From contig JANJWP010000016.1 in the NCBI GenBank assembly GCA_024709505.1, positions 1 to 32,329 of the forward strand: 32,329 nt of DNA. Direction: 5' to 3'. The first letter of the stretch is position 1; every line of letters starts with the position of its first letter. Source of the stretch: Candidatus Altimarinota bacterium (GTDB taxonomy: Bacteria > Patescibacteriota > Gracilibacteria > BD1-5 > UBA2023). The notes under the pieces were generated by a model. That model saw only the letters and a list, made by a program, of their open reading frames with translations, made no database searches and had not been told where the DNA came from. The position numbers and the translations under genes are program-made. Below are positions 1,815 through 32,026 of this stretch, one piece after another.

Positions 1815-2993
1815 CTAACGAAAGATCGCGAGCCCCCCTTTTTTGTTTCCAAGGGTTCCGACGAATACCCGCGAATAGAAGCACGAAAAAGTATCGTAAC
1901 AGGCAAAATTTACCGTTTTGCCGCTTTCGAGGAGTTCACGGATTTTTTCCGTCTCGTTTTCGTAGGTTTTTTCGTCCATGCGATAAAACGGAAAGGAAAT
2001 GACGGAATATCCGGCCGGGTAGCCGCGTTTCATGAGCGTTTCGGAAAGGGCTCAGAGCGGATCGATGAAAACGTCTTGCCGAGGAGTTTTAGAGGAATCG
2101 AAGACTTCGTAAGGAGGTTGGAAATCATAGGAAACCGGGGGAATTCCAAGACGCTTGAGAATCGGGTTCATTCCCGTTTTGAGCGCGTAGGCCGAATATC
2201 CTTTCGAACGAAGGTATGCCGTGGCGATGAGGCTTCTCGAAAGGTCGGCACCTCCATCGTGACAGACGAAGACGTAGGAAATTCCCTTTTCAAAGATTGC
2301 TTCGTCATTGACGATTGCCCGATATTCTACGTTTCGGGAGTTTTTAAAATGCGCCGAAGTCTCGAATTCGAGAGGGGTGCGGAGGTCGATAATGGAAAAT
2401 CCGGAAGAAATCTGATTTCACTGGAAAAGCTGTCCAAGTCCGATTTCGTAGCTTCCGTCCGCAATTTTTTGGAGCGTTTCTTCGTCGGTCGGTACTTTTC
2501 CGGCCGAAAGGTACCGGTTCCATATCACGTTGTTGTTTCGTCCGATGGAATAGGCGATTTCCTCTTCGAGTTTCGGGTCGGAGACGCTCAATCCTTTACG
2601 GGGGAGCTCCATATTTTCCAAAAGGAATCCTAACGGAATCTCACCTTCTTCGTCCAATCCCTTCTGTGCTCTTTCCGCAAGGGTTTTTCGCAGTTCGTCA
2701 AATGGAGAAACAGAAGGCTTTTCCCCGGTCCAAAAAAGCCCCGCCGCCAATGCGGTGAAAACGGTCGCGATTCCCGCAAAAGCGATTTTTGGATGCTTCT
2801 TTACGAAAACGCGGACATGAAGGGACGCTGCCGTCACAGCCATGGCGACGAATCCTGCTACCAGCGCGAAAATGGCGGCGGCATTCGAAATGAGTCCGAT
2901 TCCTCCTGAGACGAGAGGTCAAGGGACGGCTCCGGCAACGAGTGGCAACGAAGCGGTCGAAACGAGGAAAAAGGCTCGAAAAAGTGCGGACAT
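1815..2993 (-). CDS. Membrane-anchored rhodanese-domain protein
   Basis: A 392-aa protein read with three UGA=Gly codons (2919, 2418, 2052). The N-terminus has about three hydrophobic segments (MSALFRAFFLVSTASLPLVA, then GLISNAAAIFALVAG, then AGIATVFTALAAGLFW), so the rest is membrane-tethered. The rhodanese domain lies at about residues 190-275: SIIDLRTPLEF, then FVCHDGGADLSR with the candidate active-site Cys244, then LRSKGYSAYALKTGM. Rhodaneses transfer sulfane sulfur through a persulfide on this Cys; the substrate is unknown here. The C-terminal ~100 residues are unassigned and have Cys pairs (NFACYDTFSCFY). The ATG is 18 nt after the upstream stop, with no SD. It is the last gene of the surface-protein operon, stop TAG. 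Under the standard code it would appear as three fragments. Confidence 0.8.
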
Positions 2994-3011
2994 GGAAGAT
3001 CGCGGAGGATT

Positions 3012-3917
3012 TTATTCGGAGGCGGGTTCGGACGTTTTTCATTCCCACCGCTTCAAGGCTCAATCTATCCGCTCCAAGCGGTTTTTCAATCCTCGTTTTT
3101 GAACGTAGCTGAAGAGTTCTTTCATTCTCGTTTCGCACGTCTTCGCATCCGCTTCCGAAAGATTGCGGCATGCAAAAGATGGCGAATCGGGATATTCGAG
3201 TACCCCTGAGCGCGCCGCGAGCCAAACGGGATCGGGGGTTTTTCCAAGCAAAGCGTTTTCCAGGGCGTCTTCGACGTATTTTGAGGGATCTTCTCGGTAT
3301 TCCTCGTAACGTTTTGCGATTTCGAGGCAATCTTTCGCGAGGGAGGGGTGGACGTTTTGACACGGCGCTGAACCGTTCGCATAGGAATGGAACACCGCAT
3401 TGTCAACGATGCACGCCGCCGTGGAACAATGATCGTCGCTTTCCGTTGAAAACTTTGAGTCGTTATTTTTCCGGCATTCCTTCCGATTTTCTTCGAAACG
3501 GAGCGACGCGCAAAAAACGATGCCGGAATCCGGATCTCCGGAAGCCGAACGTTTTTCGCAATGGCGCGCAAGCGCTCCGGATGAGGCCTTTACCACGCTC
3601 GAATCACAAACTTGTTCGAGCGTCGATTCATCCAATAACGTGAGGACGTCGTGTATCGAATGTTCGCCGCCATTTCGAATAAGCCATTCCCAGGCGATCT
3701 CGGTTCTTAACAGGAGTTTTCCGGGATCGTTTCCGACCTTTGAGAGGTAATCGTAAAAAGGCGAGAGTGAAACCAGATGCCCGTTGTCCAAGCGGGCGGT
3801 TGACCATTCGAGCGCGAGATATTCGCGGTGTTGAAAAAGAATGGCCAAAGACGCGAAAATCGCGGCGAATCCCATGATTGCCGCGATTTTTCGAGGAAGG
3901 AAAAGGCCTAGTTTCAT
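3012..3917 (-). CDS. Membrane-anchored cysteine-pair-repeat protein (hypothetical)
   Basis: A 301-aa protein with in-frame UGA=Gly at 3060 and 3039. It starts MKLGLFLPRKIAAIMGFAAI, a single N-terminal membrane anchor (or uncleaved signal). The body is helical and charged, with repeated Cys pairs spaced 8-12 residues apart (for example VCDSSVVKASSGALARHC, CRNLSEADAKTC), like those of its upstream neighbour. Such repeats usually form extracytoplasmic disulfide-pinned helical hairpins; here that is inference. Its ATG overlaps the end of the upstream gene by 10 nt and it ends (TAA) 18 nt before the rhodanese gene, so it is co-transcribed with both. A longer start at 3974 is possible but adds a basic, non-signal-like stretch. 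Precise function is unknown. Confidence 0.75.
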
Positions 3918-4765: not shown

Positions 4766-4784
4766 GGTGAATGGTGGGGGAAGG

Positions 4785-7700
4785 TTATTTCGAAAAAACT
4801 TTCATTCCGGAGGTCGCGAATGCCGGATTGTATTCCATGACGAACGAAGCCGTCTTGAGGGTCGGTCGAAGTTCTGGAACATCGTTGGCATCGGTTTGAT
4901 AGCAGGCCTTCTTTCCGGCGAACGCGTAGAGTTCGGCCGTCGTTCCGAGGGATTTCGGGGAAAGTTTCCCCGGAAGGGAACAAGCGGCGGGAGCGCTCGC
5001 TTCAATGAGGAGGAACCGCCTCATGAGGGCGAAGTCGTAGCGCGAAGCCTCGACCTGCGAACAGCTTTTGCTCTTTTTTGCTTCGTAGGTATCGCTTCCG
5101 TAAGGACATTCCCAAACGCTGGTCGAGGTCATGCTTCCGCCAATGGTGTTCGAGGAAAAGAGGCTTCCGTACCAAAGGAGTTGCCGGGTCAGATCGCCCT
5201 CCCTCGTATTGTCGATGTCGTACACCTTGTTCGAAGTTCCGTCGTAACTCATGAGGCTTCCTTCGGCATATCCGGCACCAACGATGTTGGTTACCTTCGG
5301 GGACACGTAGATGTTGCCTCATTTGGCCCGATTCGTGTCGTCACGGAGCACGACGAGCGCGAGCATGGAATTCGCATCGGCATAATGCAGATCGGTGTCG
5401 AGGTGTACGTTTCCTCATCGGACGATGACGGTCTTTTTTCCGGAGACGGACATTTTCCGGTATCCGGAAGTTCGCCCGGTGTCAACGCCGCGAAGCGTTA
5501 CGATACATCCGGGATTGCCGTTGATTTCGGTTCCCGAAAGCTTGGAGAAATCGTAGTAGGTTACGTCTTTCGTAAGATTGGTGACCGAAACGGAACAAAG
5601 ATTTCCGTTATCGGAAGAAAGTCCTCTGACGAGATCTTCGACGTTTTTCCTGACGTTGCTCCTAAACTGAGCCTTATCCATGGTCTGAGTATCGATGGAA
5701 ACCCCTGATTCCACGGTTTCCATGCGGTTTTTTCCCGTATCGGCGATTTGGCCGGTCGCGGCGAATTTTTGCCCGAACGATTCCGAATTTCCGAATTCGG
5801 AATCGGGCATGGCCCCCGACTGGTATTCGAAGCCTCGGACATCGGAATCGATTCCGAGATTCGCGGTGTTGTATCCGGTGGTCGAAAGGGGCGAGGAACA
5901 ATCCGTTCCATTGCAGATGGAATTCGTTTCCAAAAACCAAGGCAAATAGCCGGTGAATCCGATTTTTCCAAATCCGATGCCGTAGGAATTTGCGCGAATG
6001 GATATCGTTTTTTCCACTTTTCCAGGAACGAATCCTCCTCCGGAACCGGAACCTTTCGGGACGATGGGGAGTCATCCGGTGAAGACAAAGGAAACCTTTT
6101 TATCATTTCCTTCTCCGAGTCAGGAATGGGTTCAGAGGTCTCACCGAATCGCGACGTCGGCGAAGTTTCCGAGGTATTTTTCGTAACGGAAATCGAACGC
6201 GTACTTCGCGGCGGAGAAGGAATGTTGGGTGGAGTTGTTGATGAAAGAAAGCTTGATATCGTGCCAGGTTCCGTCCGAAAGCGTGTTCCAGGTTTTTGAA
6301 GGCACGATTTCAAGGGCCGGCTTGAAGGCGAGATATCCGTTAATGGAGGTATTGGTTGCCAGGTCGGTTCCAAGCGATCGTCCATACGTTCCGTTCGCAT
6401 TCGTTCCGGTGCAAACGTACCCGCTCGGGCATCCTTCGGCATTCGAAACTTCGAGGGCGTTAGAAAACGCGAGCGTCTTTATTTTGATATCATTGGTCGT
6501 AAGTCCCGGATATCCTTCCTTCGTCGGAACGGCGCTTCGGACCTGAATGACGTAATTGCCTTCGTCACGCGTTCCGATTCCCCGGTATATTTTGGAGATC
6601 GAGTTCCCCTCCGCGCTGCTTTTCCAATTCCCGTCGTCCCAATTGTACCATACCGATCCGTCCATCGAATTTCCGTTCGAAGGCATTATCTCGTTTCCAA
6701 GGAAGGAGGCGTTGTTTTCGAATGCCCAATCGGCCCGGATGTCGAGAATTCCCGGAATCGGACGGATGACGTTTCCATTTGCGTCTTCCAAATGGATGGA
6801 ATAGGTATATCGGTCGTAGAGATCGGCGACGGTGGCGGTTGCGAGTCCCCGCGAGGAGGTTAAGGTCACGTCTCCCGAAATGGAAGCGACGGGCCCTGCG
6901 ATCAATTCGATCCTTTGTTCCTTCGTCGTCGCGTTCCCGGCACGATCCTGAAGGGTTATTCTCAACGTCGCGACGCATTTTCCGTCGCCATTCGTATCGC
7001 AACTCTCATTAACGAATCTCGCTTCATTCGGAAACACGTTCGAGAAGGGTTCCGAATTTGCGGGGAGGTTGAAATAGTTCGTGACGTTTCCCGACTCCGA
7101 AATCCAACTGAAAGAATAATCTCGAAAACCGGAGGTCCCCACCGCGTCGGTGGGCGTTATGATCCGATATTCGTAATTGGCAGTTGCCTGAAGGAGTATG
7201 ACCGCCGGGGAGGTCGTGGAAAAATTCGGCGGAGTCTTGTCGTAAATGATCGACGCGGATACCGAAGGGCTCACGTTTCCGGCATTGTCTTTTGCCCAAA
7301 GGTAGAGCGTTTTCGTTCCTTCCGCGGAATTGCAGGAATATTGTGCGTCGGTAAGGTCAACGCTCTTGGTCGAAGCTCCGGCTAACCAATCTTCCCATCC
7401 GCTATCCTGAAAGGTGGAGTTACAGGATAGCCGAATGGACTTCAATCCGGATCATCCCGCATCCGAAGGATCGAGATGGGCGGTTACGGTCGGGGTGTAA
7501 GTATGGAGATTCGATGCGGTTTCAGTGAGTGAGAGCGTGTGGCCGTTCCAATTCTTCACCTTTCCGGTTAGCTTGAAATATCCGTTGCTTGACGCGAGCG
7601 GGGCCGTGGTTTCCATGAAAAAGTTGGCCGAACGGGTCGAAGAACAGTTTTTTGCCATGTCACAGGCTCGGACCTTTGCCGTTTGAACGCTCGACGAACT

Positions 7701-9215
7701 CGTTCCGCAATTGAAATTTGCCGTTATGGAAGTCGTTCCGGTTGACCATGTCGCGCCATTGTCGCAACTGTATTGAATTCCTCCATAAGGAGATCCGCCA
7801 AGCGTGAGATTGTCTGCCGTTCAGACAAAATTGACGGGAGCATTCGTCCAAGTTGAGGGGGAGACGGTAATGTCGGAAATCGTCGGGGGTTCGTCATCCC
7901 AACACCAACATCAGGCGCTTCATGCCGGCGAAAGGTTTCCCACGACCTTCGCGCGGCTTTTGGGTTCTCACCTTCACGTTCCGTCAGGAACGCACTTCTG
8001 TTGCGGGCTGAGCCAAACGTTTCCGTTTTCTCCGACCGGAGGTTCCCACCAAACGATTCTTCCGGTGGCCGGATCCTGACAATCGTACCATCCATCGCCG
8101 GCCGTTTCGGGGATTGGCGGGGGAGGGGGGAGTTTGTGGATTGAGAAAATATTTGAATCCGTACACCGCTGCCCTGATGTTCCGACAAACTCGCAAAGCC
8201 GTCCTTGAATCTTGGTGATCCGATCGTTTTTTGGAATGAACGCATAGTTCAAGGGCGCCGAAACGGCTTCGTATTCGCTTCCCGACCGTATGCGGACCCC
8301 ATCTATGATAATCGGGTCGAAGGATCCGTTCGAAAACCATCCGGTATCGCTTTCGACGGCTCCAATGGCTCCGCTTACCAGATTTGCGTGATGAACGATG
8401 ATTCGGTAGGAAGCGTAGATTTTCGAAGGTCCGGCAACATCCGCCAAGGCGCACTTCACTTCGCCGGCATAAGGATTTCCGAGCGGGCGCATGTCGTTGA
8501 TGAAATTGTCGCAGTTCAATGCCGGCATGTTCGGCTCGAATCCATCGACGCGTTTTCTCGGACCGACGCATTCGATGGAATTTCCCGCGTTATCGGAAAC
8601 CGTAATGCGGGCCAAATCACCCATGATGGCGCTCTGGTTTGCCGGAGCGTCCAGGGTATCCGAAGGCCAGACATACGATTCGCTTGATTTTGGAACGCCG
8701 CTTTGGGAGTCGCTGATGCTTACTAAATAAGATCGGTCCCAAGGAATCCAGTGCCAAGGAAGAAAGGTTACGTCCTGTCAGGGGCTCCAGTATCTCGTTG
8801 GACTTCCGGTAGTGGCAATCGTCCAGTTTCCGCATGTCGGCGGAGTGGTGTCGATTCGGAGCGTTGGAGATTCGCATTCCTTGGAATGTCCGCTCACGGA
8901 ATAAGCTACGGTACAGGTCCCCCCATCGTTACTGACCGTACAAGATCTGCTGGAGAGGGTGGAGGTACTGCCTCACGTTCCGGTGTAGGTGGTTCATTGG
9001 TTTCGGAATCGGACCGATTCTTTCCACCAAACGGTGTCTCCGCGGTCGTAGGTCCCGCTTTTCACGTCAACCGTCCAGGATCAGCAATCAATTCGGGAAG
9101 ACCCAGAATCTTCTTCGGGTGCGGCTAAAACTGAAAAGCCCGTGGAATGAAGGGCGATCAGCAGAATGGCTGACGATGCCAATCGTAATCCAAAGGAAGG
9201 GCGGCCTCTTTCCAT
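4785..9215 (-). CDS. Giant secreted multidomain surface protein with Ig-like domains
   Basis: A 1476-aa protein continuous only if UGA is Gly; it has 16 such codons (9081, 8994, 8973, 8778, 7974, 7968, 7920, 7911, 7821, 7452, 6141, 6132, 6120, 6072, 5415, 5319). It has an N-terminal signal peptide (MERGRPSFG, hydrophobic core SSAILLIALHSTGFSVLA, likely cleavage after AA near residue 32). Several Ig-like/cadherin-like beta modules are marked by TTPP or TPP linkers (DTTPPTCGNW, DEPPTISDITVSP, YDKTPPNFS) and motifs such as VSDNAGNS, AKDNAGNVS and QDRAGNATT. A Gly/Ser linker (GSGSGGG, ~residue 1055) precedes a C-terminal beta-rich region with repeats VIVRGGNVHL and KGGNIYVSPKVTNIVG, a style common in CPR surface proteins. 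Many Cys suggest extracytoplasmic disulfides. It begins the 9215-1815 operon and has a candidate promoter just upstream. A role in host attachment is inference only. Confidence 0.85.
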
Positions 9216-9242
9216 AGTTCGGAATTGCGGATAAACGGCGGT

Positions 9243-9270
9243 ATTCTAAACTAAGTTTTCGCCAAAACAA
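9243..9270 (-). promoter_or_regulatory. Candidate promoter for the giant surface-protein operon
   Basis: On the minus strand: TTGTTT (9270-9265), a 16-nt spacer, and TAGAAT (9248-9243, five of six bases matching TATAAT). It overlaps the end of the preceding gene and would give a leader of about 20 nt to the ATG at 9215. It suggests that the surface operon can be transcribed separately from the hxs operon. Confidence 0.45.
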
Positions 9271-10858
9271 GCAAGTCTTCCCATTTAGGGGGAATTTTGT
9301 AACAGTGGGCGCTTATGGACGTCAATTGTTTGAATTTTTCGTCAAAATCCGTAGTCGATGAATTTTCGGAATTCCCGTATCGAATTTCCTTCTTTTCCGG
9401 AGACGGCGCGGTCAATTGAACGTGAACCGCTCCATTTTTAAAGGGGACGTAGGCGGCATTTCCATTTTCGGAAATTTCGAATGGCCGGAAATAGGGATAA
9501 CCGGAACCGGAATGCGTTTTCCGAACCCATCCCGGAACGTCTTCGATCGGGACCGAATCGATGTCGTTCCGGGCAAGATCGATATGGAAAGCTTCCTGCA
9601 TGGTTCTCGCGTTGACGATATAGAACCGATTTGGTTGCCCGATGGTGGCGATAAATTCCCCCAATGCGTTTTGAAACACCCTATGGCTGGTAAAGCGGTA
9701 TCATCTCGGAGTGTCGAACGTCCCGGTTTTTCGCAATTCGCCTTGGAACAGCTCAAATCGATCTATCGACGCGGGTCAGAAATACCGTATCCCATCTAAG
9801 AAAATATCGAAATTGTGACTTGAGACGTAGACCGTATTCGAATTTTTCGAGAACTCAAAATGCGCCGGACTCCCGTTTGTCGTTTCCGCGAGTTGTAAAA
9901 AATCGGGATTGGATAGGGGAAAATAGCTGATTCGACCGGGAAGGAATTTTGAATTTGGAAAAAGTTTTTCGAATACGACGTCGTTCAGTTGGTCGCATCC
10001 AAGCCTGGTTTTGAGATTTTGCAGGAATTTTTCGAAGGAGGGGGAAAGTTTCTTAATAAGTCAGAAACGTAGCAGACAGGAGTCTTCGAATGTCTCAACT
10101 GCCACGCTTCCGCCATGAATTTTTTGATATGACTCAAAGAGTTTCCGCATTGAGATTTCGGCCAATTCTTCCCGATTGAGCTTTTGTTTGCCGTTTTGTG
10201 GGAGAAGGTAATTCCCCTCCTTGAAATACGAATCGTAAAAAATCCCCTCATGCACCCTTGCCATGTGCGGTGCGTTTGCGTCTCCTTGATAGGCTTCCTT
10301 TGAAATGCGTATCTTCTTCCAGCGCGAAAAGTCATAGGCGATTTCAACGTCGCAGATTTCCTTCGTTCCGTCGGGAAGTTCGCGAAGGCAGGAAGAATAA
10401 AAAAAGTCGGAATCCGGCTTTACGAAAGCGGTAGTGGCAAAAGCGATGACCTTTTCTTCGGGTCAGAAAATTTCCGCGGAATCAAAAATGAAGGCCCTTT
10501 TATTTTTCGGATCGAAACGAATGCCGATCGAAGAAAATTCGAAAAAAGACAGAAAGGTTCCATCCGGACAGGGAATGATGCAATGGGCGTCCTGCATTGC
10601 GTTTGACATGTGCCGGAAAAAAAAACCGGAACCATCGTTTCGGATTTCTTCGGCAATTTTGATGTTTTCCTCCGAAAGAAGCCACCAAATGGAAACCTTT
10701 CCGAGCCGGTGGTTCGTGATTATCCCGTTTGGGAGCATGTAGTATGGGTCCGACTTCGGATCCATTGCAAAATGGACGATGGGGTTTTCGAATTCCGGAA
10801 ATTCGCGAAGTTCCGGAATTTCTTTCTCGAACACGTCGAGCGAAAGTTGTTTAATCAT
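9251..10858 (-). CDS. Uncharacterised hxs-operon protein
   Basis: A 535-aa protein read through UGA=Gly at 10463, 10061, 9776 and 9701; stop TAG. The start ATG overlaps the end of the upstream radical SAM gene by 8 nt, so translation is coupled. No signal peptide or membrane segment is evident, so it is probably cytoplasmic. Composition is mixed alpha/beta with many aromatic residues and Phe/Tyr-Gly turns (for example NTVYVSSHNFDIF, IATIGQPNRFYIVNA), compatible with a beta-propeller-like fold in the C-terminal two-thirds, but no diagnostic motif is visible. I do not recognise the family. Its place at the end of the hxs operon suggests a role in the maturation, binding or processing of the modified product. 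Homology search and structure prediction would be needed to go further. Confidence 0.75.
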
Positions 10859-12899
10859 TGGAAGAAACGATCATGTGGTATTCTTCCATGGTCCGGATGA
10901 AAGCCTCTTCCGGCGGCGTTTGAAAGGCCTTTGCCATATTCTCTTCCAGCGTTGCGGAATCATTCCATTTTCAGATATCAAATCCCGTTCCGGCTTTGAA
11001 ACTGAGGGAATATCCGGTGGCTAGATTGATCAGGGAATCCACCCCTTTTACGTTCACGTATTTTCCCAGTCGGTAACGCCGTTTTAAGCTCTCCTTCCAT
11101 GGAGTCCGCAAAAGCGCTTCCCGATCGCGCACGGTTTTTCGAAACGCGCTTTCCCGAAAAAACGATTTCAAGTGGTAGAATATTCCAGTCCGGTCGATGA
11201 AATCCCAAAAATCCTTTGGAAAATTTTCCGGGATGGCATTCGGATTGACGAATTCCAAGAACTGCAGCCGGTGAATTTCGTTTGCGAATTTTTGTTGGGC
11301 CTGCGAAAAAACCTTGGAACGAATCATTTCCAATCGCAGCTTCAAAGAAGCGGCATCGGGTTTATCCCGTGAAATTTGAATTCCGAAGCGTTCGCCATGT
11401 TTTTCGTACACGCTGCCGCGATTCAGGCCGAAAACGTTCGGGGAACAGGTGTAATTGTCGCGCTCGCGAATGTTTTTCGAAAGGAAAAGGAACGTTTCGT
11501 ACATTTCGTCCTGACGTTCTCAGGGGAGTCAGAGAATCGCGTAATTATGAAAAGGAATGCCTGCCGATTCGAAATTCAAAATGATTTCCATTTTCTTTTT
11601 CAAGGGCATTTCGCTTCCCTTGTTGATCAGGTCGCTTACTCTGTCAGACGCGCATTCGAGTCCGATTCACACGTATCTCGCGCCGGATTCATGCAAAATT
11701 CGACACGCTGCCGCATCATACGCAGAATCGAATCTGGTTCGAAAACGGTACGTTAACGACAGGCCCCTTTCGAGTATTTTTCTCGCGAATTCGAGAATAT
11801 CCTCCGATTTTATCGCCTCGTCCGCAAGATAGAGGTACTCGATGCCGTATTTTTCGACGTAATCTAAGCAAGCATCAAGATATCTCGATCCCTCCTGTTT
11901 ATAGGGATAGAGATGCGTCGAATTGATGGTGCAGAAAAAGCAGCTGCTCCAGTAGCACTTGTAGGGAAAGAGCCTCAGCGTGGAAATTCTTTTTCCAAAA
12001 ATCTTCCGTTCCCGGGGTTTTTTATGGAAATATTGAACAAAGCGCTCAAAAAGCGTTTCTTCTGAAATTGCCTTCGGTTTCTGGAAAGAAGGGGTTCATT
12101 CGCGTAAACATACGACATTTTCCAAATCTTGGGGAATCTCTTTTCCATGGGAAAAGGCTTCCAAAATCATGCCCAAGGCATGTCCGTAATCTTCGTATAC
12201 GGTAATCGCGTCCACGAATTCGAAGATTTCCGGATTTTCTTCGAACGCGGTTATCCATTGGGTAAAATCAGCCTGTTCATTGCTTTTTGAAAAATCTAAA
12301 ACAACCCTTTTTCCCAGTTCCTTGAATCTTTTTGCCAGAGGGATGACCTGATAGAGCCCTGCGGGCCAAAAGAAATCTATGACGATTGAATGATATTCTT
12401 GGAGTTCGCAGGCGTTTTTGATTTCGGAGAAGACCAATCGGAACAAGGGGTCTTCAAAAAACCCCCGGTCTATTTCAAAAAGGTCCGGCAAATCTATGTC
12501 GTTGGCGTCAAAACGGTTGATTTGATGGAGGAGTCCCATCGAGGGGGAAATTTTCCAATTTGGAAAACCGGCCATGAATTCCTCGCATACCGCATTCAAT
12601 CAGACAAATGCCACGAAAAGGTCTTCGGCCGAAGGCAGTTCCTTGTCGGAGTCGGCAAAAGCCCGCGTGGATTTTTCGAATTCCCGAACGTAGGGATTTT
12701 CCGATCCGGGAGAAATCCGAATCCCGAATTCGTGGATTTTTTTCCAAATAAGCGACCCGATATCGAATTCGTCCGTTCACCTTCCGATTTTTAGGAATGT
12801 GGAATCGAACTGAAACTTCCGTTCGTCCAATTTTCAGAGCGGCGAGATTCTGAGGATTCGAGGTTTAGTTGGCAATCCAGGTGCGGAAGATTCTTTCAT
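10851..12899 (-). CDS. B12-type radical SAM enzyme with CX4CX2C cluster motif
   Basis: A 682-aa protein with eight UGA=Gly codons (12834, 12777, 12600, 12096, 11667, 11529, 11520, 10971). Residues ~1-270 resemble the cobalamin-binding-like Rossmann domain found before many radical SAM cores (VIDFFWPAGLYQVIPLAKRF; VDAITVYEDYG), but no DxHxxG corrinoid loop is evident. The radical SAM core starts at residue ~305, with the cluster motif CYWSSCFFC (Cys315, Cys320, Cys323). The spacing CX4CX2C is non-canonical. Later come YVGIGLE and AIGLPGE, typical core motifs whose glycines include UGA codons at 11667, 11529 and 11520. The C-terminal ~180 residues are accessory. Its start overlaps the end of hxsB by 35 nt, so it is probably co-translated with it. 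Likely it modifies the HxsA-derived peptide or a related substrate; the reaction is unknown. Confidence 0.85.
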
Positions 12900-14313
12900 T
12901 GTCTGCGTCTTGGAGTCGGATAAAGAGCGCGTCCAGAATCCCGGTTTCTATTCGGCGCTTAAAATCAGTGGGGTATTTGGGGTAAATGTCCCCCGTGGCC
13001 TTGAAATTATTTGCGGGACACGATCCGATGTACGGTTTGTACGGGTCGCTCTCGTATCCAGGAAGTCATTCGATGAGGGACGCCGAAAGAATGGCCTTGG
13101 TCGAAGGGGACGTGATCATCGAGACGTAGGTGTTTCGGGGATCTTCCGAGACTTCGCCGATCTGAAAAGCGTCGCTGCCCATTCTGGCCAGCATCCGCCC
13201 CTCGTCACAGGTATAGATTTTCCCATCGTAATTATAGGCCACCTGACCTATTCCGGCTCAACACGGCGAACGGGTGTCTACGTAATTGGGATCGTAGGGC
13301 GTGAGTATTTTTTTGAGAAATATGGTCGAATACGCCTCCTTCATGGTTGATTTCCCCGATTTGTTGAGTTCAAGCAGGTAGTCGAGAACCCTTTCGTAGG
13401 ATGCCACGAATTCCTCAGGGGAATATCAGAGGAACGAAAACGTCTTCGCGCCGTAACCCATGGCATTAAGGGGGCGCCAAAAAAGTTGGTCCATGCCGAA
13501 ACTGTCGTAGGTATCTACGCACTCCTTCCATTTTTTCAAGCTTTTGGAAGTAACGGTAAGAAGTGCTGATATGACATTTTTTCTCCAGTATTTTTCTTGG
13601 GAAAAGGCATCTATTCGACGGATCCAAAACTCAACGTTTTTATAGGAATTTCCTTTGAGAAAAGTTCGATTGAAATTATGGGTGGATTCGTCCCCGTCGA
13701 GCGAAGTGTTGAGTCCCACGTTATGGTGGAGGAGAAATGCCATTTTTTCCTCGTCCATGAGGGAGAGGTTTGTAACGAGCGAGAATTGCACGGGCTTTGC
13801 GAGCCTTTCGGATTTCTCCTTGGCATACTCGATCGAATATTTCACCACTTCCCAATTCACCAGGGGTTCTCATCCTTGAAACTCGAAAGAAATTTTCGGA
13901 GCGGTCGAGAAAAATGCCGTATCGATTATTTTTTTGGCGGTTTCCTGGCTCATGTCGAACCCTTCGGCGTCCATTGGAGCAACGGCCGCATGGCAATATT
14001 GGCAAGCGTGATTGCAACGCAGGGTGACCACTAAAATGTGCAAATTCGGTCCGCAGGCCATGAACGCGTGCTTTTTCGCGAATGCCAGAGCGGATTTTTC
14101 CAAGGCGAGCCCGATGATTCCGGCGTTTTCGAGTTTCGTTTTCACGGTTTCATCGTTTTCGGGCGGTTCCCCGGCGAGAAGCTTTTGAAACTGCGGTTCG
14201 GAAATGATGGCGTATCCGCCGTGCTCGGAAGTGAGGATGACATTTCCGTCCTTGAGTTTCTTAAAACGGAACGGATTGAAATTTTCGGGTTTGAGGGAAA
14301 TTTTCGGTATCAC
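12865..14313 (-). CDS. hxsB: His-Xaa-Ser system radical SAM maturase HxsB
   Basis: A 482-aa radical SAM peptide maturase (typical length for HxsB). The N-terminal domain (~1-85) has the HxsB-like start FRFKKLKDGNVILTSEHGGY. The 4Fe-4S motif is TLRCNHACQYC (CX3CX2C; Cys100, Cys104, Cys107). It is followed by EFQGGEPLVNWE, where the second Gly of GGEP (residue 148) is the UGA at 13870, and by TNLSLMDEEKM and STSLDGDE. The C-terminal SPASM-like region has SPCGAGIGQVAYNYDGKIY (Gly at 13258 is UGA) and further Cys residues (TCDEGRM, GSCP). Further UGA codons are at 13426 and 13066. Start is GTG at 14313, because an in-frame TAA lies just upstream at 14332. It follows hxsD by 18 nt. HxsB acts with HxsD on the HxsA precursor; the exact chemistry cannot be read from sequence. 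Confidence 0.92.
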
Positions 14314-17925: not shown

Positions 17926-19261
17926 TTATGACGAAGGATTCGTCGCGATCTATTATGCGGTCTCATCCCTTGAACTGGAAGCGTATTCTTTTCGATCGGT
18001 CTTCGGGGGTTTTCGCATCGAGGAGATAAAATCCATCATTGCTGATTCATACGACCATTTCTTCGAGACCGTCTCCATCCAAATCCTTCCCGAAGACCGC
18101 TCGTACGGAGTACAGCTTGAAGGCGGTAAGATAGGAACGCTTTTTGAGATATTCCTCCGTAATGAGATCTTCCGAGAAACGCATCTCATCAATCTTCTCG
18201 ATTTCCAGGGAGTTTGGCTTTTCCCGAAAGAAATACAGCGTCGAATTATCGCATCCGATTTGGATGGTGGGATCTTTGTAAAAATTTACGGCTGAAATGG
18301 TTTTGCATTCGACGTGCCCTTCGAGTTCGGCGACTTGTGCCTTTTCGATGTCGCCTTCCGGTCAATGGAAATACCGGTATATCCGAACTGGTCGAATGGG
18401 GCTTCCGCTGCCGTCAATCATCCCGTCGTAAAGCACGAGAACGCTTTTTTGAAAAGGGGAATCCAATGCCATGAGCCTCCTGGGAAAGGCCGGAAGTTCG
18501 TCTTCCAAATCCTTTATGACGGGCTTGTCGTTTCCGGGGTTGAACGAAATGGAAGTCACGGTTCATTCCGAATACCACTCCCGAGCTCAAGAAACGCCCA
18601 TGTAGGGGGTTGTTCGGGTAAGATAGATTTCGTCATTGCCGTCATCGTCGAGATCCGTGGCATCCACGAAATGGAGGAGGGTGGCGTAAGAATCTCCCCA
18701 AACGTCGATTCGCGGACGGTAAGGGACATGAAGAATCCTTTCCTTTCAGGAATCCAAAGATCGAAGATGCACGTATCATTCGCCATGGCTGACGGCTACG
18801 AAATACCGTTCGCCATTTATTTTCGCCGTGGTAAAATTTCTGATTCGGTAATCGGGCGTGGACATGTACGTCTCCGTCCTTCCGTTTTTTGCCACGAAAA
18901 AAACCTTTCCCGATCCGGGATTCTTTCCGGGTTTTCCTCCGGTTACCAAGAATCCCCCGTTCCAAGCCGCCGTATTTTGCGCGAAGAAGTCTTCCGGAAT
19001 TTCCGAGAACCGGTATTGTTTCAGATCTTCGCTTCCAAGCACGAGTCCCTTCTGAAAATCTTCCACGGAAAATCGGAGGATGCCTCAGGAGAAGCTTCCA
19101 TAAAGGCTGTAAAATGTTCCAACCAAAAACCGCTCTTCTCCCGGCCAAAATCCTATTGACCTAAGCGACAGGATCGAAATCAGCATCAACAAACCGAGCG
19201 TCCATGGTAAAACCGCTCTTTCGGTTTTACCATGGACGGGAGGGGAAAATTTCCGAAACAT
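17900..19261 (-). CDS. Membrane-anchored FG-GAP/VCBS-repeat protein
   Basis: A 453-aa protein with eight UGA=Gly codons (19085, 18776, 18746, 18587, 18563, 18362, 18047, 17963). It has a short cytoplasmic N-terminus, then one membrane segment (AVLPWTLGLLMLISILSL). The outside portion resembles an integrin-alpha-like FG-GAP propeller: calcium-loop style motifs DATDLDDDGNDEIYLT and KDLDGDGLEEMVV, with blades such as GGFLVTGGKPG and GISNDGFYLLD. These repeats bind Ca2+ and ligands outside the cell. Start chosen at ATG 19261; a TTG at 19267 would add two residues. A 17-bp perfect hairpin sits in the coding sequence 23 nt after the ATG. It follows the TPR gene by 6 nt and overlaps the PRTase-propeller gene by 26 nt, so it belongs to the hxs operon. 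Confidence 0.83.
19199..19238 (-). repeat. 17-bp perfect inverted repeat inside the 5' coding region
   Basis: Arms 19199-19215 and 19222-19238 are exact reverse complements (core GTCCATGGTAAAACCG) with a 6-nt loop CTCTTT. In the mRNA this hairpin would lie about 23-62 nt after the ATG of the FG-GAP gene. It lacks a T-run, so it is not a typical terminator. It may act in translation control or RNA processing. Confidence 0.9.
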
Positions 19262-19267
19262 TTTCAA

Positions 19268-22906: not shown

Positions 22907-24691
22907 CTAATTGTACGCGAGTGCTTCGAATTCTTCCACTTTCTTTTCGAGGATCGAGAGTCCGAGGCGGTAGAATTCCGGACGGGAAATATCGAATCCG
23001 TATTTCGCCAGGAGCTCTTTTGGGCGAACGGAACCTCCCGCGCGCAAAATGTCCTTGTAGCCTTCGACGAAGGATTTTCCGGTTTCTTGGTACCGTTGGT
23101 AAAGGGCTAGTACGAGGAGGTGTCCGAACGAATAGGCGTAGCAGTAAAACGGCGAATTGAAGACGTGGGGAATCGAAGACCATCCGAATTCTTCGCTTGC
23201 GGGAAGTTCGTATTCCACGGCGTCGGCGCTCATGGCGAGCTGTTCTTCGCGCCACATTTGGTTGTAGTCGTGGTAGGTGAGTTCCTTTCCGGAATGCACG
23301 GCTTCGTGGGCGCGTTTTTCGAACGAGACGTATTGGATCTGTCGGAAAATCGTTGAGAACGCGTCGGAAATTTCGTTCGAAAGGAATCCGGCGTAGTCCT
23401 TTTCGTCCAAGCGTTCGCGAATCTTTTCGGACAGAAGCATTTCCGAGAATATCGAGGCCGTCTCCGCAAGGCAGAGAGGGCTGTCAAAAACGCTTCCGTT
23501 TTGGATTTGCGAAAGCTTTCCGTGGATGGCGTGGCCGAGTTCGTGGGAAAGCGTGGGGACATCAAGCAACTTCCCCGTGTAATTGAGAAGAACGAAACTC
23601 TCGGAATTTTTCGAATAGCTCGCGAACGCGCCGCCCTTCTTTCCTTTTTTCGGAAAGGCGTCCACCCGTCCGGATTCGAAAATCTGAATGGAATAATCGT
23701 GGAATTCCGCATCGAAATCCTTCATGGTTTGGAGGTGGAGGGCCAAGCCTTCTTCGAGCCCGCAGGGGGTTTCAGAGGTCGAAAGCGGAGCGAAGACGTC
23801 GTAATTCTTAAGCGAATCGAGCCCGAGAAGCTTCTTTTTGGCTTTGAGGTAGCGCGGAAAAAGCGGATAGGCACGTTTTACCTCGGACAAAAGCAATTCG
23901 ACCACCTCGTTTTCGAGTTCTTCGGAAACGTTGCGCGGTTCCATGACCGACGAATATCCCCGGAGCGTGAGGTTGGACGACCAATTTTTCAAAATTCCCG
24001 AATACGACGCCCCAAGCGCGATTTGCACGGGTTTTTGAAGGTAGGCCGCCGCAATCGATTCGAAGGCCTTTTTCCGGATTTCCCGCGAGGGCGATTCCCG
24101 CAGGGCGCGGATTTCGGCGTCGGTAAGGATTTTTTTCTCGCCATCCTCTTCGATTTCGAATTCGAGCGCGCCGACGAGTTCGTCGTGGAGAGCTCCGGCG
24201 GTTCCGAGCGGGCGCGACTTGACGTTGAGGACGTATTCTTCTTTTTCGCCCAAAATGCGCTTGATCGATTCGGCCGTATGGACGACGGCGTTCGCGTGCC
24301 CGGCAAGCGCGGGCGATTTCGACCATTCCAAAAGACGGTCGTAGCCGATTTCCTTCCAGGCTTGCGAAACGAAAAGGAGCAAGTTTCCCGCTTCGATGAA
24401 CATGACGTCGATCTCGCCTTGGGCTTTGAGAACCCGGGAATTTTGGGTGTCGAGGCTTTCGAGGTAGGAAACGTAGTAGGCCGGTTTGGAAATCGATTCC
24501 GAAAGGGTCTGTTCTTCTTCGATAAAGGTTGCGAGTTCTTCGGGCGTACCGACGCGTTTGAGCTTTTCGCTCCATTTTCGTGCGAATTCCCGAACCTTCG
24601 GAAGCACGTCGGCAAGATCGCTTTGGAATTTCGGGTCGTCGAGGGATTCGTAGAAGTAGCGTTTGAGGTCCCACTCGGTTTTTACGGGCAT
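22907..24691 (-). CDS. pepF: Oligoendopeptidase F (M3 family metallopeptidase)
   Basis: A 594-aa zinc peptidase of the usual PepF length (~600 aa). The catalytic motif is SHELGHAIH (HExxH: His383, Glu384, His387), preceded by the conserved TLSHELGH context. Downstream comes LAETASIFSEMLL, which supplies the third zinc ligand Glu. The C-terminal part has FNSPFYCYAYSFGHLLVLALY and FDISRPEFYRLGLSILEKKV, as in PepF. It degrades cytoplasmic oligopeptides of roughly 6-20 residues, and might clear leader peptides of the neighbouring Hxs system, though this is inference. A good promoter (TTGCAA-16-TACAAT) lies upstream. No in-frame UGA occurs in 594 codons, unlike most neighbours. Stop TAG; the next gene starts 3 nt later. 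Confidence 0.96.
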   Translation of the reverse strand: MPVKTEWDLKRYFYESLDDPKFQSDLADVLPKVREFARKWSEKLKRVGTPEELATFIEEEQTLSESISKPAYYVSYLESLDTQNSRVLKAQGEIDVMFIEAGNLLLFVSQAWKEIGYDRLLEWSKSPALAGHANAVVHTAESIKRILGEKEEYVLNVKSRPLGTAGALHDELVGALEFEIEEDGEKKILTDAEIRALRESPSREIRKKAFESIAAAYLQKPVQIALGASYSGILKNWSSNLTLRGYSSVMEPRNVSEELENEVVELLLSEVKRAYPLFPRYLKAKKKLLGLDSLKNYDVFAPLSTSETPCGLEEGLALHLQTMKDFDAEFHDYSIQIFESGRVDAFPKKGKKGGAFASYSKNSESFVLLNYTGKLLDVPTLSHELGHAIHGKLSQIQNGSVFDSPLCLAETASIFSEMLLSEKIRERLDEKDYAGFLSNEISDAFSTIFRQIQYVSFEKRAHEAVHSGKELTYHDYNQMWREEQLAMSADAVEYELPASEEFGWSSIPHVFNSPFYCYAYSFGHLLVLALYQRYQETGKSFVEGYKDILRAGGSVRPKELLAKYGFDISRPEFYRLGLSILEKKVEEFEALAYN

Positions 24692-24719
24692 TTCGTTTCG
24701 AAAAAGGAATTAAGGCGGA

Positions 24720-24795: not shown

Positions 24796-24804
24796 TTGGT
24801 GCGT

Positions 24805-26253: not shown

Positions 26254-26264
26254 GTTTCCCTTCC

Positions 26265-27485
26265 ATGATGCGACTCCCGTTTTTTCTCCGATTGGTTTTC
26301 AACCGCTTCTTTTTTCAGAAGATGGCGGCGCTTGCGATTCTCGGCGTCTTCATTTACGCGCTTTCGGATTTTCTCTCCATCTTTCTTATCACGTTCCTCT
26401 TCGCCTTTTTATTCTTGGATTTGTCGAATTGGCTTTTGGGGAAGATTCTCGCGTTTTCTCATCGGCTGAATCCTCCGGCCCGAAATTTCGTCGTCCGGAT
26501 GAATAAATTGCCCGTCATCGTCACGGCGGTATACCTCTTCTTCATCGCGGGCGTGGTGTTTCTTTTTTCGAACCTCGTTCCCCAAGTTCTCGAAGAATCC
26601 AAGGGCATCGTGGCTGAAATTCCGGGTATCGCCCGCGACGTCGAACGCAACATTGCTTGGATGGAGTCTTCCATGCAGGTGGATTTGGGGCTTCGGGAAG
26701 CCATAAGTTCCTATTTTGACAAGCAGGCGATGGAACAGACCGCGAAGGACGTTTTCGAAAATCTTCGGAATGCCGGAATCCTTTTGGGGAAAATATTCAT
26801 CGCCCTCGTTTTAAGCTACGTGTTCATTATCGACCGAGCCAAAATCATGGGATATCTCGAAACCGTCAAGCGGGGGAATTTCGCTTTCCTCTATGACGAA
26901 TATTCGATCATCCTTTCAAAAATCGGAAAGGGTTTCGGTCTCATTTTCAAGGCGCAGGCGTTCATCGCCCTCGTAAATGCGCTTTTAACCACGCTCGGAT
27001 TGCTCGTCATAAGCGCCATCCACGGGGGGGACGTATTTCCGTACATCTCCACCCTTGGCGTGATGGTATTCATTCTCGGATTCGTTCCGGTCCTGGGTTT
27101 CATTCTCTCTTCGATCCCGATTCTCATTGTCGGATATAACTACGGCGGAGCCTCCGTCGTATGGATGGTTTTAGCCATGATCGCGTTCGTTCATGCGGTC
27201 GAGGCATACTACCTCAACCCGAAAATCGTCTCTTCTTACATGGAATTCCCGGTGTTCATCACCTTTCTCGTCCTGCTCGTTTCGGAGCATGCCTTCGGTT
27301 TCGTAGGGCTCCTCATCGGAGTTCCGCTCTTCTATATTCTCATCGACGTCGCCCGCGACGTGGATGCGTTCGTAAACAAGGTGAAAAAGGTTTCCACGGC
27401 AATCGACACCACCAAGACGTCCACGAAGGAAGCCATTCATAAAAACATCCGACTGTCCCGTTCGCAAGGATCTTCCGAGGAATAA
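26265..27485 (+). CDS. AI-2E/PerM-family membrane transporter
   Basis: A 406-aa protein with the family layout: paired N-terminal helices (AALAILGVFIYALSDFLSIF), a central soluble helical segment (~110-170, LVPQVLEESKGIVAEIPG), and C-terminal helices ending in the conserved region NPKIVSSYMEFPVFITFL then GFVGLLIGVPLFYIL. Family members are UPF0118/PerM-type permeases, proposed as exporters of small molecules or Na+/H+ antiporters; the substrate cannot be inferred. The start is ATG 26265 (a second ATG is the next codon), 11 nt after dnaX. No in-frame UGA. The C-terminal tail is cytosolic and basic/Ser-rich. TAA stop. Confidence 0.93.
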   Translation: MMRLPFFLRLVFNRFFFQKMAALAILGVFIYALSDFLSIFLITFLFAFLFLDLSNWLLGKILAFSHRLNPPARNFVVRMNKLPVIVTAVYLFFIAGVVFLFSNLVPQVLEESKGIVAEIPGIARDVERNIAWMESSMQVDLGLREAISSYFDKQAMEQTAKDVFENLRNAGILLGKIFIALVLSYVFIIDRAKIMGYLETVKRGNFAFLYDEYSIILSKIGKGFGLIFKAQAFIALVNALLTTLGLLVISAIHGGDVFPYISTLGVMVFILGFVPVLGFILSSIPILIVGYNYGGASVVWMVLAMIAFVHAVEAYYLNPKIVSSYMEFPVFITFLVLLVSEHAFGFVGLLIGVPLFYILIDVARDVDAFVNKVKKVSTAIDTTKTSTKEAIHKNIRLSRSQGSSEE

Positions 27486-27510
27486 GAGACCGCACTTTTG
27501 CTTTTTTCGC

Positions 27511-28572: not shown

Positions 28573-28578
28573 AATTCC

Positions 28579-28911
28579 ATGGACGAACTTTCGCTCCGCT
28601 ATTTCTGAATTCTTTCCGCAATAGGTTGCGGAATCCTCGTAAGAACGTTTTTTCGATGGAAGTCCGATGGAAAACCTCTTGCTGATTTCGTGACGACCGC
28701 GCTCTTGATGCTCTCATTCATGCCCGCATCGATAACTTCGGCCGCCGTTTGTGCTGGAAAAGGGGAATTCGGTCCAATAAAGTGGGTTGCGGCATCCATT
28801 TTCCTCTTCCTATTGTACTGTCCGTTTTTGATCGGCGATTCTTTCTCGGTTCCGGTTCTTTCCTACTTGGATTTCGCGGATGGCGGAATACAATCTCCGG
28901 TACACGAATAA
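28579..28911 (+). CDS. Small membrane protein (hypothetical)
   Basis: A 110-aa protein with UGA=Gly at 28606 (codon 10), giving RYFGILSAIGCGILVR. It has about three hydrophobic segments (ILSAIGCGILV; VTTALLMLSFMPASITSAAV; WVAASIFLFLLYCPFLIG). No family is recognised. It begins 6 nt after the CYTH gene and ends (TAA) 2 nt before the next ATG, so translation is probably coupled. Under the standard code only a GTG-started 73-aa remnant would be seen. Confidence 0.65.
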
Positions 28912-28913
28912 AA

Positions 28914-30332
28914 ATGTTGAGAAAATCTTTGGAGTCGCGCGTTTGGCATAAGGAAATTCCGGTATGACCGGGCATTTTCGAATTTTTTTCCACGGCATCT
29001 CTTAAAACCTCCTCCGAAGCCGATTTTACCAAGGCGATCCGGGAAATTGAAGGCCGATTGGAGGGGCGCGTTTTCGAAGGGGTGAGCGTTACCGCCTTTC
29101 ATTCCGTTTTCTGTCCCTTTTCGGTTTCCGAATCCCGAGCGCTTCAAAAACTTGCCCGAACGGCATTTATCGGATGACGGGCGCCGGACGGGCGATCTTT
29201 CGTATTCACGGGGTACGTTTTCGAATCCGAGGCCTTGCGGAACGCTTCGTTTGCCAAGGATGATTTGGGCGATTGTTCGGTTTCTTGTATTTCGTTTCCT
29301 GGATGCAAAAAAATCACCCTCGACGCGTTTTTGTCCGAAGGGGAATTCGAATCGCAAGTCGATGCCTTCTACGACCGGATCGAATCGGTCATGCGTGCGA
29401 AGCGGCTCCCGCCCGAATCGTTTGTCCGAAGCTGGAATTACGTCGATTCGATTTTGAAAAACTATCCGACGTTCAACCGGGTTCGCGACCGGAGGTTCGA
29501 CGCGATGGGAATCGAACGTTCCGCGTGCCCGGCGGGAACCGGGATAGACGCGGTACTTCCCAATGCCGGAATGTCGGCGTTCGCGGAGTTTCATTCGGCA
29601 GGGGAGTCGGGCGTTCCGAAAATCGTGAAATACAAAGCGGGACCTCAATGCGAGGCTCTGGATTACGGTCCGAGATTTTCGCGTGCCGCTTACGTGGAAT
29701 CAAACGGTTGGAGGAGGATCCACGTTTCTGGGACTGCGTCGGTGGGGTCGGGGGGTGAAACGCTCAATGCCGATGATATCGTGGCGAACGTCGCCCATAC
29801 GATGGAAACGGTCCGCGAACTCCTCGATATCGCCGGAGCGGAATTTTCGGACGTCGTCCGTTCGCATGCCTACTTCAAACGAGAGGAATTCGAAAGTGCT
29901 TTTTCCGACTGGAAGGCTCGTGGAGGATGGGATTTTCCCACGGCCGAAAACGTGTGTGACGTTTGTCGCGACGACTGGCTCTTCGAATTCGAGTGCGTGG
30001 CGTTCGTCCGGGTGAAGCGGGGGGCGTTCGAACGTTTCGGCGACGATGCCGAAACAATCGGTAACAAGGCCGAAAATTGCCGCAAGCTTGCCGAGCTCGG
30101 ATTCCCGGTTCCGCCCTCGCTCGCGATTCCCGGTTCCCTGAATCCGGAAATTTCGAACGGCATTTCGAATCTTCGCTTTTGCGTGCATTTTGAGAAGATT
30201 TTCGACAGAAACGTTTCGCCGTTCGGTCGAGCTCTTCGGCGGAAGATTCCTCTTCTTCGTCGATGGCCGGGGCATTCCGTTCGGAAATCGACGTTCCGTT
30301 CTCCGGACTTTGACACGCCGTTTCATTGGTAA
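28914..30332 (+). CDS. RidA/chorismatase-like domain, N-terminal part of a PEP-synthase-like fusion
   Basis: A 472-aa reading frame with UGA=Gly at 28965 and 29175. Residues ~140-365 resemble the RidA-fold chorismatase-like family (FkbO/Hyg5 type): SWNYVDSILKNYPTFNRVRD, PAGTGIDAVLP, YGPRFSRAAYV, RIHVSGTASVG, VAHTMETVRELLDIAGAEFSD and FECVAFVRV. The last ~90 residues enter the start of a pyruvate-phosphate-dikinase/PEP-synthase ATP-grasp domain, AETIGNKAENCRKLAELGF, with no stop between the two. Homology then leaves this frame near 30180 (after ISNLRF), and the real continuation is in the -1 frame (next entry). The tail to the TAA at 30330 is therefore an out-of-frame artefact. The start ATG lies 2 nt after the preceding gene. 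The enzyme activity is uncertain. Confidence 0.78.
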
Positions 30333-32026
30333 GGGAATCGCTCGAATCGAACGGGGAACCTTTCGGAATCCTCATACAGGAATACGTCCCGCTTTCGAAG
30401 TTCGGCGTCGCGTTCACTTCCGATCCCGATTTTCGCGAACACGCGATGTCCGTCGAAGTTTCCGAAGGTTCCGGGGAGGTTCTCGTTTCCGGGAAAAACG
30501 CTCCGAAGCAGTTCGCTTTTTCGCGCAATTCCCGAATCGAACCCGCGGTTCGAGACGGAATCGACTTCGAATTTTGGAGGAAAACGTTCCGCCGGATCGA
30601 ATCGGCGTTTTTCGCTCCGCAGGATATCGAATGGGGAATTTCGGAAGACGGGAAGCCATTCGTTTTTCAAACGCGCCCGATAACGACCCTCGGCTCCGGA
30701 GAACGGGAGTTCCTCGGAACGCTCGATCGGTTCGAAGTCGAACGGAATCCCAAGGGGCCGTTCGAACTCGTCCGAAACGAACTTTGCGAACCCTTCGACC
30801 GACCGACCGCTGACGAACTCGCCTTTCTCCGGACGCTCTATTCCCACGAATCGGTAGTTTCGGCTTACCGGAAATGGGGAATCGAATACCGTCCGAAGGA
30901 TTTTCTCGCAGTCGTGGGCGAGAGGCTTTTTATCGATGTCCAAAAAGAACGCGAGTGCTTCGATTTTTCGGGCGTTCCGGGATTTTTCGGATGGTGGTGA
31001 CGACAAAAGAATTCGTGGAATCTCGGATCGGTCGCTTCGAAGTTGCGGCTTCGCGGAGAGGGGATTTTATCCGAACTGGAAGCGCGAATGTTCGTTTCCC
31101 TCGGACGTCTTGCCAACGAAGACGCGGGACCATTGGAAGGAACGAATTCAGCGAAGCGGGCGGGCGGGCTTTTCGGTTCGGACGGACGGTTCGCTCTTTG
31201 GATATCCGAGCTTCTTTCCGCGCACTACGGCGCCGTTTTCGAAACGAATTTCCTCGCTTCTTCTTGGGCGTCGTTCCAAAAGCGGTTCTCCTTTCGGGAA
31301 GGGGGTCATTCCTTGCAAAACGTGAACGCTCCGTACTTTCCGAACGATTCGGAAAAATGGAAATCGCTTTTCGAACGGATTGCTTCAAGGGGATTTTTGG
31401 GAAATTCGCTCGCATTTTCGGACGTTTCGTCGTTCGTAACCCCGCTTTTTTCGCCGTCGCGATGGAATTTGCCACTGGGGGAGGCGGAGGGTTTCCGTTC
31501 CGTTTCGAATGTTTGAGGACTGCTTTCGGATGTAGAAATATCGGCCCGACTCGATTTTTTACGAGAAGCCGGACGTGCCGTGTCGGTGGGGATATCGAAT
31601 GCGATTTCCCCCGCACGCACGCGCTTTCGGACGACGGGCCCAAATGCCGAATCCGCTTCTGCCATTCGTTGTCCGCGCCGTCTCCTCTCGCCATTTTTTC
31701 AAGAAACGCCGCATGGTTTCGATTGGGAAACGGTTTCCGCTTGAATGGCTGAAGGGAAGTTCGTTCGGCTCGGTTCGACTTTCGAGGCTGGAACTCCTTT
31801 GGTATTTTTCGTGGAGTCCCTTGATCCGTCCCTTGCGGTTTCTCTCCCCGAATCCACCGTGGCGGTCATATCGGCGCAAGGGGGGCGACTTTCCCATTTT
31901 GCCATCGTCGCCCGCGAAAGGGGATTGCCCGTTTTCGTCGCGCCCGGATTTAACGCTTCGAAGTTTCAGGACGGATGGGTGAGGGTGTCGGATGAGGGGG
32001 TTTTTGAAGCTCCGGAATGATTGTAA
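30179..32026 (+). CDS. PEP-synthase/rifampin-phosphotransferase-like protein, C-terminal part after frameshift
   Basis: Continuation of the previous entry in another frame, with UGA=Gly at 30191, 30311, 30998, 31514, 31742 and 32018; TAA at 32024. The ATP-binding part starts RAFGEDFRQKRFAVRSSSSAED, then GLGHAVSLVRESLESN, QEYVPLSKFGVAFTSDP and DIEWGISEDGKPFVFQTRPIT, as in PEP synthase and rifampin phosphotransferase. The middle is divergent. The C-terminus is the swivelling phosphohistidine domain: AVISAQGGRLSHFAIVARER with catalytic His at 31895-31897. There is no C-terminal TIM barrel, so the order ATP-grasp, variable domain, His domain is that of rifampin-phosphotransferase-like dikinases. 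The frame change maps to CGCTTTTGCG (~30174-30183); one missing T would restore the frame. No own start codon is evident, so it is best read as one fused gene. Confidence 0.78.

What the first reader, a model, noticed from the sequence alone, without database searches (positions are those of the whole stretch)
1815..32026. UGA is read as glycine across the window (table 25)
About 80 in-frame UGA codons occur in at least 15 genes whose reading frames and homology continue on both sides. Many sit at invariant glycines: DnaX ARG-G-LRDAL (25432), HxsB FQG-G-EP (13870) and PC-G-AG (13258), radical SAM R-G-C (15486) and IL-G-LPGE (15069). All delimited genes stop with UAA or UAG, and UGG still encodes Trp. 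This is known for Gracilibacteria and Absconditabacteria. It means a standard-code annotation of this contig would report false pseudogenes and lose most of the genes below.
Basis: partly seen in the sequence, partly recalled or inferred. Interest (0 to 1): 0.75.

Follow-up and report, generated by a model that had tools for sequence, protein, structure and literature searches.

The report
UGA codes for glycine (code 25)
This stretch comes from a small, poorly known bacterium that reads the usual stop codon UGA as glycine, an alternative genetic code already known for its group; the less expected lead is a classmate genome that seems to read UGA as glycine while keeping the protein that normally stops at UGA.

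Summary
Confirmed, and mostly known. In 22 window genes read without UAA/UAG, 83 in-frame UGA codons occur in 17 genes (10.9% of Gly codons); every gene ends in UAA (17) or UAG (5). Against a same-genus genome, 21 of 26 UGA sites with a sense codon face Gly (background 7%, P 2e-20). DnaX UGA-213 faces Gly in 77/77 standard-code bacteria; two HxsB sites in 8/8. UGG stays Trp; CGA/CGG stay Arg. The only release factor is RF1, itself carrying UGA at the invariant Gly of RAS-G-AGGQ. One tRNA(UCA) has Gly identity elements; ARAGORN mislabels it SeC. RF2 is missing in 59 of 60 sampled genomes of the order. This is code 25, shown by proteomics in a BD1-5 bacterium (PMC4032931). Possibly new: the order's UCA tRNA is 79 nt, with a 6-bp anticodon stem and no GG in the D-loop. 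A classmate outside both known clades (G069) has UGA at Gly sites of pilB, 2.9 kb from an intact RF2 gene in ancestral gene order, plus a Gly-type UCA tRNA: a candidate intermediate, so far from one unnamed assembly.

The parts
1..1386 (+). 16S rRNA, cut at its 5' end by the contig edge
   Evidence: Rfam RF00177, 1324.5 bits
1815..2993 (-). rhodanese-domain protein, 3 UGA (first bases 2921, 2420, 2054), stop UAG
   Evidence: two of three UGA face GGG in G001
3012..3911 (-). unknown protein, start uncertain, 2 UGA (3062, 3041), stop UAA
3908..4780 (-). lipoprotein-like protein, start approximate, 2 UGA (4615, 3916), stop UAG
4785..9215 (-). large surface-type protein of 1476 aa, 16 UGA, stop UAA
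   Evidence: 7 of 7 aligned UGA face GGN in G001
9251..10981 (-). unknown protein, 5 UGA, stop UAG
10851..12899 (-). radical SAM protein, 8 UGA (IL-G-LP-G-E at 11531 and 11522), stop UAA
   Evidence: PF04055; both sites face GGN in G001
12865..14313 (-). HxsB radical SAM maturase, 4 UGA (13872, 13428, 13260, 13068), stop UAA
   Evidence: TIGR03978 450.8 bits, cut-off 370; Gly 8/8 at codons 148 and 352
14790..16931 (-). radical SAM protein, 6 UGA (R-G-C at 15488, IL-G-LPGE at 15071), stop UAA
   Evidence: PF04055 6.1e-21
16216..17925 (-). phosphoribosyltransferase / beta-propeller protein, 13 UGA, stop UAG
17900..19267 (-). unknown protein, 8 UGA, stop UAA
19268..20518 (-). unknown protein, 1 UGA (20122), stop UAA
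21009..22127 (-). membrane protein, 1 UGA (21431), stop UAA
22139..22903 (-). membrane protein with His-rich tail, 2 UGA (22798, 22261), stop UAA
   Evidence: UGA 22798 faces GGA in G001
22907..24691 (-). M3-family oligoendopeptidase, no UGA, stop UAG
   Evidence: PF01432; TIGR02290
24796..26253 (+). DnaX (DNA polymerase III gamma/tau), UGA at 25399 and 25432, stop UAA
   Evidence: TIGR02397 380.4 bits; UGA 25432 = Gly in 77/77
26265..27485 (+). AI-2E family transporter, no UGA
   Evidence: PF01594
27511..28572 (+). unknown protein, no UGA
28579..28911 (+). small membrane protein, 1 UGA (28606)
28914..30332 (+). chorismatase / Rid-like protein, 2 UGA (28965, 29175)
30077..32026 (+). PEP-synthase-like ATP-grasp protein, 6 UGA, stop UAA
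   Evidence: PF01326, PF00391

Best explanation
The window lies in a patescibacterium of a Gracilibacteria (BD1-5)-type order that uses NCBI genetic code 25. A tRNA-Gly with anticodon UCA reads UGA, RF2 has been lost so nothing terminates at UGA, and RF1 ends genes at UAA and UAG; UGG remains Trp, read by tRNA-Trp(CCA). Shown by sequence: UGA at Gly columns, the tRNA gene, RF1 alone, no UGA gene ends. Inferred: charging of the tRNA with glycine and the incorporated residue. In this genome UGA is a minor Gly codon (10.9% in the window, none of 98 in rpoB), which fits its higher GC (51% in the window).
For: Site and stop counts. Gly at UGA columns: 21/26 in the same genus, P 2e-20; 77/77 DnaX; 8/8 at two HxsB sites; in RpoB of the order, 140 of 141 invariant UGA-facing columns are Gly. 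tRNA(UCA) with G1:C72, C2:G71, G3:C70, U73, beside tRNA-Gly(GCC), found in 64 of 77 genomes of the order. RF1 is the sole release factor, PET motif, and its own gene has UGA at the Gly of RAS-G-AGGQ, aligned with Gly in Thermus RF1. RF2 absent from 59 of 60 genomes of the order. Proteomics on a BD1-5 bacterium: 97 peptides unique to UGA-Gly against 3 unique to UGA-Trp (PMC4032931).
Against: Five of 26 UGA sites face another residue in the relative, much as ordinary GGN codons do (69% conserved for GGA). The same-genus genome G001 gave no tRNA(UCA) hit, but it is only 79% complete in 150 contigs. One genome of the order (G058) has a prfB; it is 2.7 Mb in about 500 contigs and may be contaminated (not tested). 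No peptide data for this organism.
Confidence: 0.97

Rival explanations
1. UGA is read as tryptophan (table 4), as in mycoplasmas.
For: UGA to Trp is the other known bacterial UGA reassignment (PMC8629427); RF2 is also lost there.
Against: No UGA column faces Trp in the same-genus relative (0 of 26), DnaX or HxsB. The tRNA(UCA) has Gly, not Trp, identity elements, and tRNA-Trp has anticodon CCA.
Confidence: 0.005
2. UGA encodes selenocysteine, or the UCA tRNA is tRNA-Sec, as ARAGORN labels it.
For: ARAGORN prints tRNA-SeC.
Against: The tRNA has a 7-bp acceptor stem, 4-bp D-stem and a 4-nt variable loop, unlike tRNA-Sec. UGA is spread over 17 of 22 genes, mostly at Gly columns. SelA/SelB and SECIS elements were not searched.
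Confidence: 0.003
3. The UGA codons are sequencing errors or decayed genes under the standard code.
For: Under table 11 most of the long genes are cut.
Against: 83 UGA but no UAA or UAG in the same frames, where composition predicts 148 and 165; UGA sits at invariant Gly columns; housekeeping genes (dnaX, prfA) carry it; no RF2 in the genome.
Confidence: 0.002
4. UGA is ambiguous here: mostly Gly, but sometimes still termination or another residue.
For: Hanke et al. found single peptides with other residues at UGA (PMC4032931). UGA is avoided in rpoB of this genome, 0 of 98 Gly codons against 10.9% in the window.
Against: No gene end at UGA in the window and no RF2 in the genome. Avoidance in one highly expressed gene can be ordinary codon bias in a genome of about 51% GC.
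Confidence: 0.02

Closest known systems
NCBI genetic code 25 in Gracilibacteria (BD1-5/GN02)
   Same: UGA=Gly, UAA/UAG stops, no prfB, prfA present (PMC6851277, PMC4032931, PMC8629427)
   Different: About 51% GC, near the top of the 0.21-0.53 range reported in PMC8629427; UGA is a minor Gly codon and absent from rpoB
Absconditabacteria (SR1) code: UGA=Gly plus CGA/CGG=Trp
   Same: UGA=Gly, RF2 lost, Gly-type tRNA(UCA)
   Different: CGA and CGG remain Arg here; the likely SR1 family (f13) has a tRNA(UCA) with a D-loop GG and a 5-bp anticodon stem
Mycoplasma code 4 (UGA=Trp)
   Same: UGA made sense after RF2 loss
   Different: Amino acid and tRNA differ

Membership tests
Genetic code 25 | UGA at conserved glycine positions | tested here: met
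Genetic code 25 | genes end only in UAA or UAG | tested here: met
   17 UAA, 5 UAG, 0 UGA in 22 window genes
Genetic code 25 | tRNA(UCA) with Gly identity (G1:C72, C2:G71, G3:C70, U73) | tested here: met
   G000:C27:50920-50998 (-); rule from PMC8629427
Genetic code 25 | RF2 (prfB) absent, RF1 present | tested here: met
Genetic code 25 | UGG still Trp | tested here: met
   32 of 39 columns Trp; tRNA-Trp(CCA)
Genetic code 25 | glycine found in peptides at UGA sites | not testable with these tools
   no proteome for this organism; done for another BD1-5 bacterium in PMC4032931
Genetic code 25 | member of the Gracilibacteria/Absconditabacteria lineage | tested here: inconclusive
Absconditabacteria CGA/CGG=Trp code | CGA and CGG face Trp | tested here: not met
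   CGG: Arg 31, Lys 11 of 57; CGA: Arg 32 of 45; Trp not among the residues listed
Genetic code 4 | UGA faces Trp | tested here: not met
   0 of 26 sites
Selenocysteine insertion | tRNA-Sec fold | tested here: not met
   7-bp acceptor, 4-bp D-stem, 79 nt
Selenocysteine insertion | selA/selB/selD and SECIS | not tested
   not searched

The most novel reading that the evidence does not exclude
UGA=Gly is not confined to the two known clades of the class, and one genome outside them, G069, is a living intermediate. It has UGA at Gly sites of pilB and apparently of several surface-protein genes and a Gly-type tRNA(UCA), yet keeps an intact RF2 gene with its programmed frameshift site, in the gene order of a standard-code relative; some of its genes may still end at UGA. 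A further genome, G070, uses UGA for nearly all Gly in rpoB. Within the window's own order the UGA-reading tRNA has a conserved non-canonical fold (6-bp anticodon stem, no G18G19).
Probability: 0.5. Interest if true: 0.8.

Novelty: new member of a known kind. Interest (0 to 1): 0.4.

Why it matters
For the window: any standard-code annotation of this contig reports broken genes, and ARAGORN names the decoding tRNA SeC, so the correct code is needed for all other readings here. For the field: reassignment of UGA is usually explained by loss of RF2 or by an ambiguous intermediate. A bacterium with RF2, a Gly-type tRNA(UCA) and UGA at Gly sites would let those models be tested directly, and it would conflict with the statement in a 2026 review (PMC13293708) that UGA-to-Gly is restricted to the Gracilibacteria/JAEDAM01 lineage and goes back to its last common ancestor.

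Tried and rejected
Campbell et al. 2013 is not held, so I could not check whether the SR1 or BD1-5 tRNA fold is already described; held papers searched did not describe it. RNA model R1 is not specific: it also matches ordinary tRNA-Gly, His and Asn. A first RpoB tree used wrong frames for three genomes and was redone. Chimeric assembly of G069 contig C59 was considered and judged unlikely: prfB, pilO and pilB keep the order seen in standard-code G067, and GC is fairly even. Independent origin for G070 is not shown: grouping it with the known clades is not rejected (p-AU 0.144). Grouping G069 with them is rejected at p 0.0145, one of four such tests, not corrected.

Full report
What was checked. 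The window is contig C29 of a 1,166,642-base genome in 33 contigs, 98% complete. In 22 genes read without UAA or UAG, 83 UGA codons lie in 17 genes, making 10.9% of Gly codons; all genes stop at UAA (17) or UAG (5). From the base composition at each codon position one expects 86.5 UGA, 147.7 UAA and 164.9 UAG in these frames; found are 83, 0 and 0. UGA thus behaves like a sense codon. The zeros for UAA and UAG are partly built in by the choice of frames.

What UGA means. Aligned with the same-genus genome G001, window UGA codons face Gly in 21 of 26 columns with a sense codon, and UGA in two more; background Gly is 7% (P 2e-20). Ordinary GGA codons face Gly in 109 of 157. UGG faces Trp in 32 of 39. 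CGG and CGA face mainly Arg or Lys, and Trp is not among the residues listed, so the additional Absconditabacteria change is absent. In 77 standard-code bacteria, DnaX codon 213 (25432) is Gly in all; codon 202 is variable. In eight HxsB proteins from plasmids, codons 148 and 352 are Gly in all; 296 and 416 are variable. In RpoB of genomes from the order, 140 of 141 UGA columns that are invariant in standard-code relatives are Gly.

Machinery. Of the 42 tRNAs over the Rfam cut-off one has anticodon UCA, 21 bases from tRNA-Gly(GCC). ARAGORN calls it SeC, but its acceptor stem has G1:C72, C2:G71, G3:C70 and U73, the rule used for Gly in PMC8629427. The only release factor is RF1 (PET motif; prfA 455.8 bits, cut-off 423; prfB 262.8, cut-off 370). 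Its gene holds one UGA, at the Gly of RAS-G-AGGQ, which is Gly in Thermus RF1; this organism must therefore read UGA as sense to make its own release factor. Among 60 sampled genomes of the order, 59 have no prfB over the cut-off; the exception, G058, is 2.7 Mb in about 500 contigs. Family f13, probably Absconditabacteria, has none either, while most other families of the class have it.

Known or new. UGA=Gly in Gracilibacteria and Absconditabacteria is established: proteomics in PMC4032931, computation in PMC8629427, absence of prfB in all BD1-5 genomes then available in PMC6851277. The window adds a higher-GC member in which UGA is a minor Gly codon: 0 of 98 in rpoB, against 73 of 96 and 75 of 92 in low-GC members of the order. 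The same-genus genome G001 is probably JAUPLX01, a bin named after a WHONDRS sample: its contig C98 and record JAUPLX010000087.1 share length and alignment.

The tRNA. In 30 genomes of the order the UCA tRNA is 79 nt. The drawn cloverleaf, with a 6-bp anticodon stem, is paired in 99.7% of cells with compensatory changes. No copy has GG in the D-loop; the other tRNAs of this genome that were printed have it. The f13 UCA tRNAs have a D-loop GG and a 5-bp stem. I found no description of this in held papers, but the key paper, Campbell 2013, is not held.

A lead outside the window. Testing the tRNA model on standard-code classmates turned up G069 (family f14; 1.5 Mb, 95% complete, 1% contamination), which has a UCA tRNA with Gly identity elements. 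Its contig C59 carries an RF2 gene with SPF and GGQ motifs and the frameshift-type site AAGGACTATGTTTGAC, and 2.9 kb away a pilB with five in-frame UGA. Four of the five face Gly in the standard-code relative G067, where prfB, pilO and pilB keep the same order; the fifth faces Gly in Geobacter PilB. In 423 kb sampled, 51 of 249 long reading frames contain UGA (an upper bound, because starts were not fixed). A few genes (a TagA-type transferase, a transposase, a uracil-DNA glycosylase, LepA with UGA-UAA) may end at UGA. The RpoB tree puts G069 among standard-code families, and grouping it with the known clades is rejected at p 0.0145. G070 (f15) has 77 UGA and 2 GGN in rpoB, with 47 of 51 invariant columns Gly; its separate origin is not shown (p-AU 0.144), and no UCA tRNA was found among its 26 detected tRNAs. 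These are single unnamed assemblies, and the conclusions are provisional.

Noticed in passing
G069 contig C59 (L250:6963-7994 and 10886-12130): Intact RF2 gene with frameshift-type site beside a pilB with five UGA codons at Gly sites; the genome also has a Gly-type tRNA(UCA). Candidate intermediate in UGA reassignment.
   Followed up: partly
G070 rpoB (L314): 77 UGA and 2 GGN codons; UGA sits at Gly columns, in a family that falls among standard-code families in the RpoB tree.
   Followed up: partly
G000:C27:50920-50998 (-) (L040:221-299): UGA-reading tRNA-Gly of 79 nt with 6-bp anticodon stem and no GG in the D-loop, conserved across the order; ARAGORN labels it SeC.
   Followed up: partly
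own genome prfA (L041:1447-2526, -): RF1 gene carries one UGA at the invariant Gly of RAS-G-AGGQ.
   Followed up: yes
window 20607-20930 (-) with HxsB at 12865-14313: Candidate HxsA-like precursor with His-x-Ser repeats and a Gly-rich tail near HxsB and two more radical SAM genes; a RiPP-type cluster in a patescibacterium.
   Followed up: no
window 32155-32329: Contig-end repeat, 96-99% identical to places on contigs C23, C25 and C26 of the same genome.
   Followed up: no
G058:C153:10080-11129: A 507-bit prfB in a genome of the code-25 order; the assembly is 2.7 Mb in about 500 contigs, so contamination is likely.
   Followed up: no
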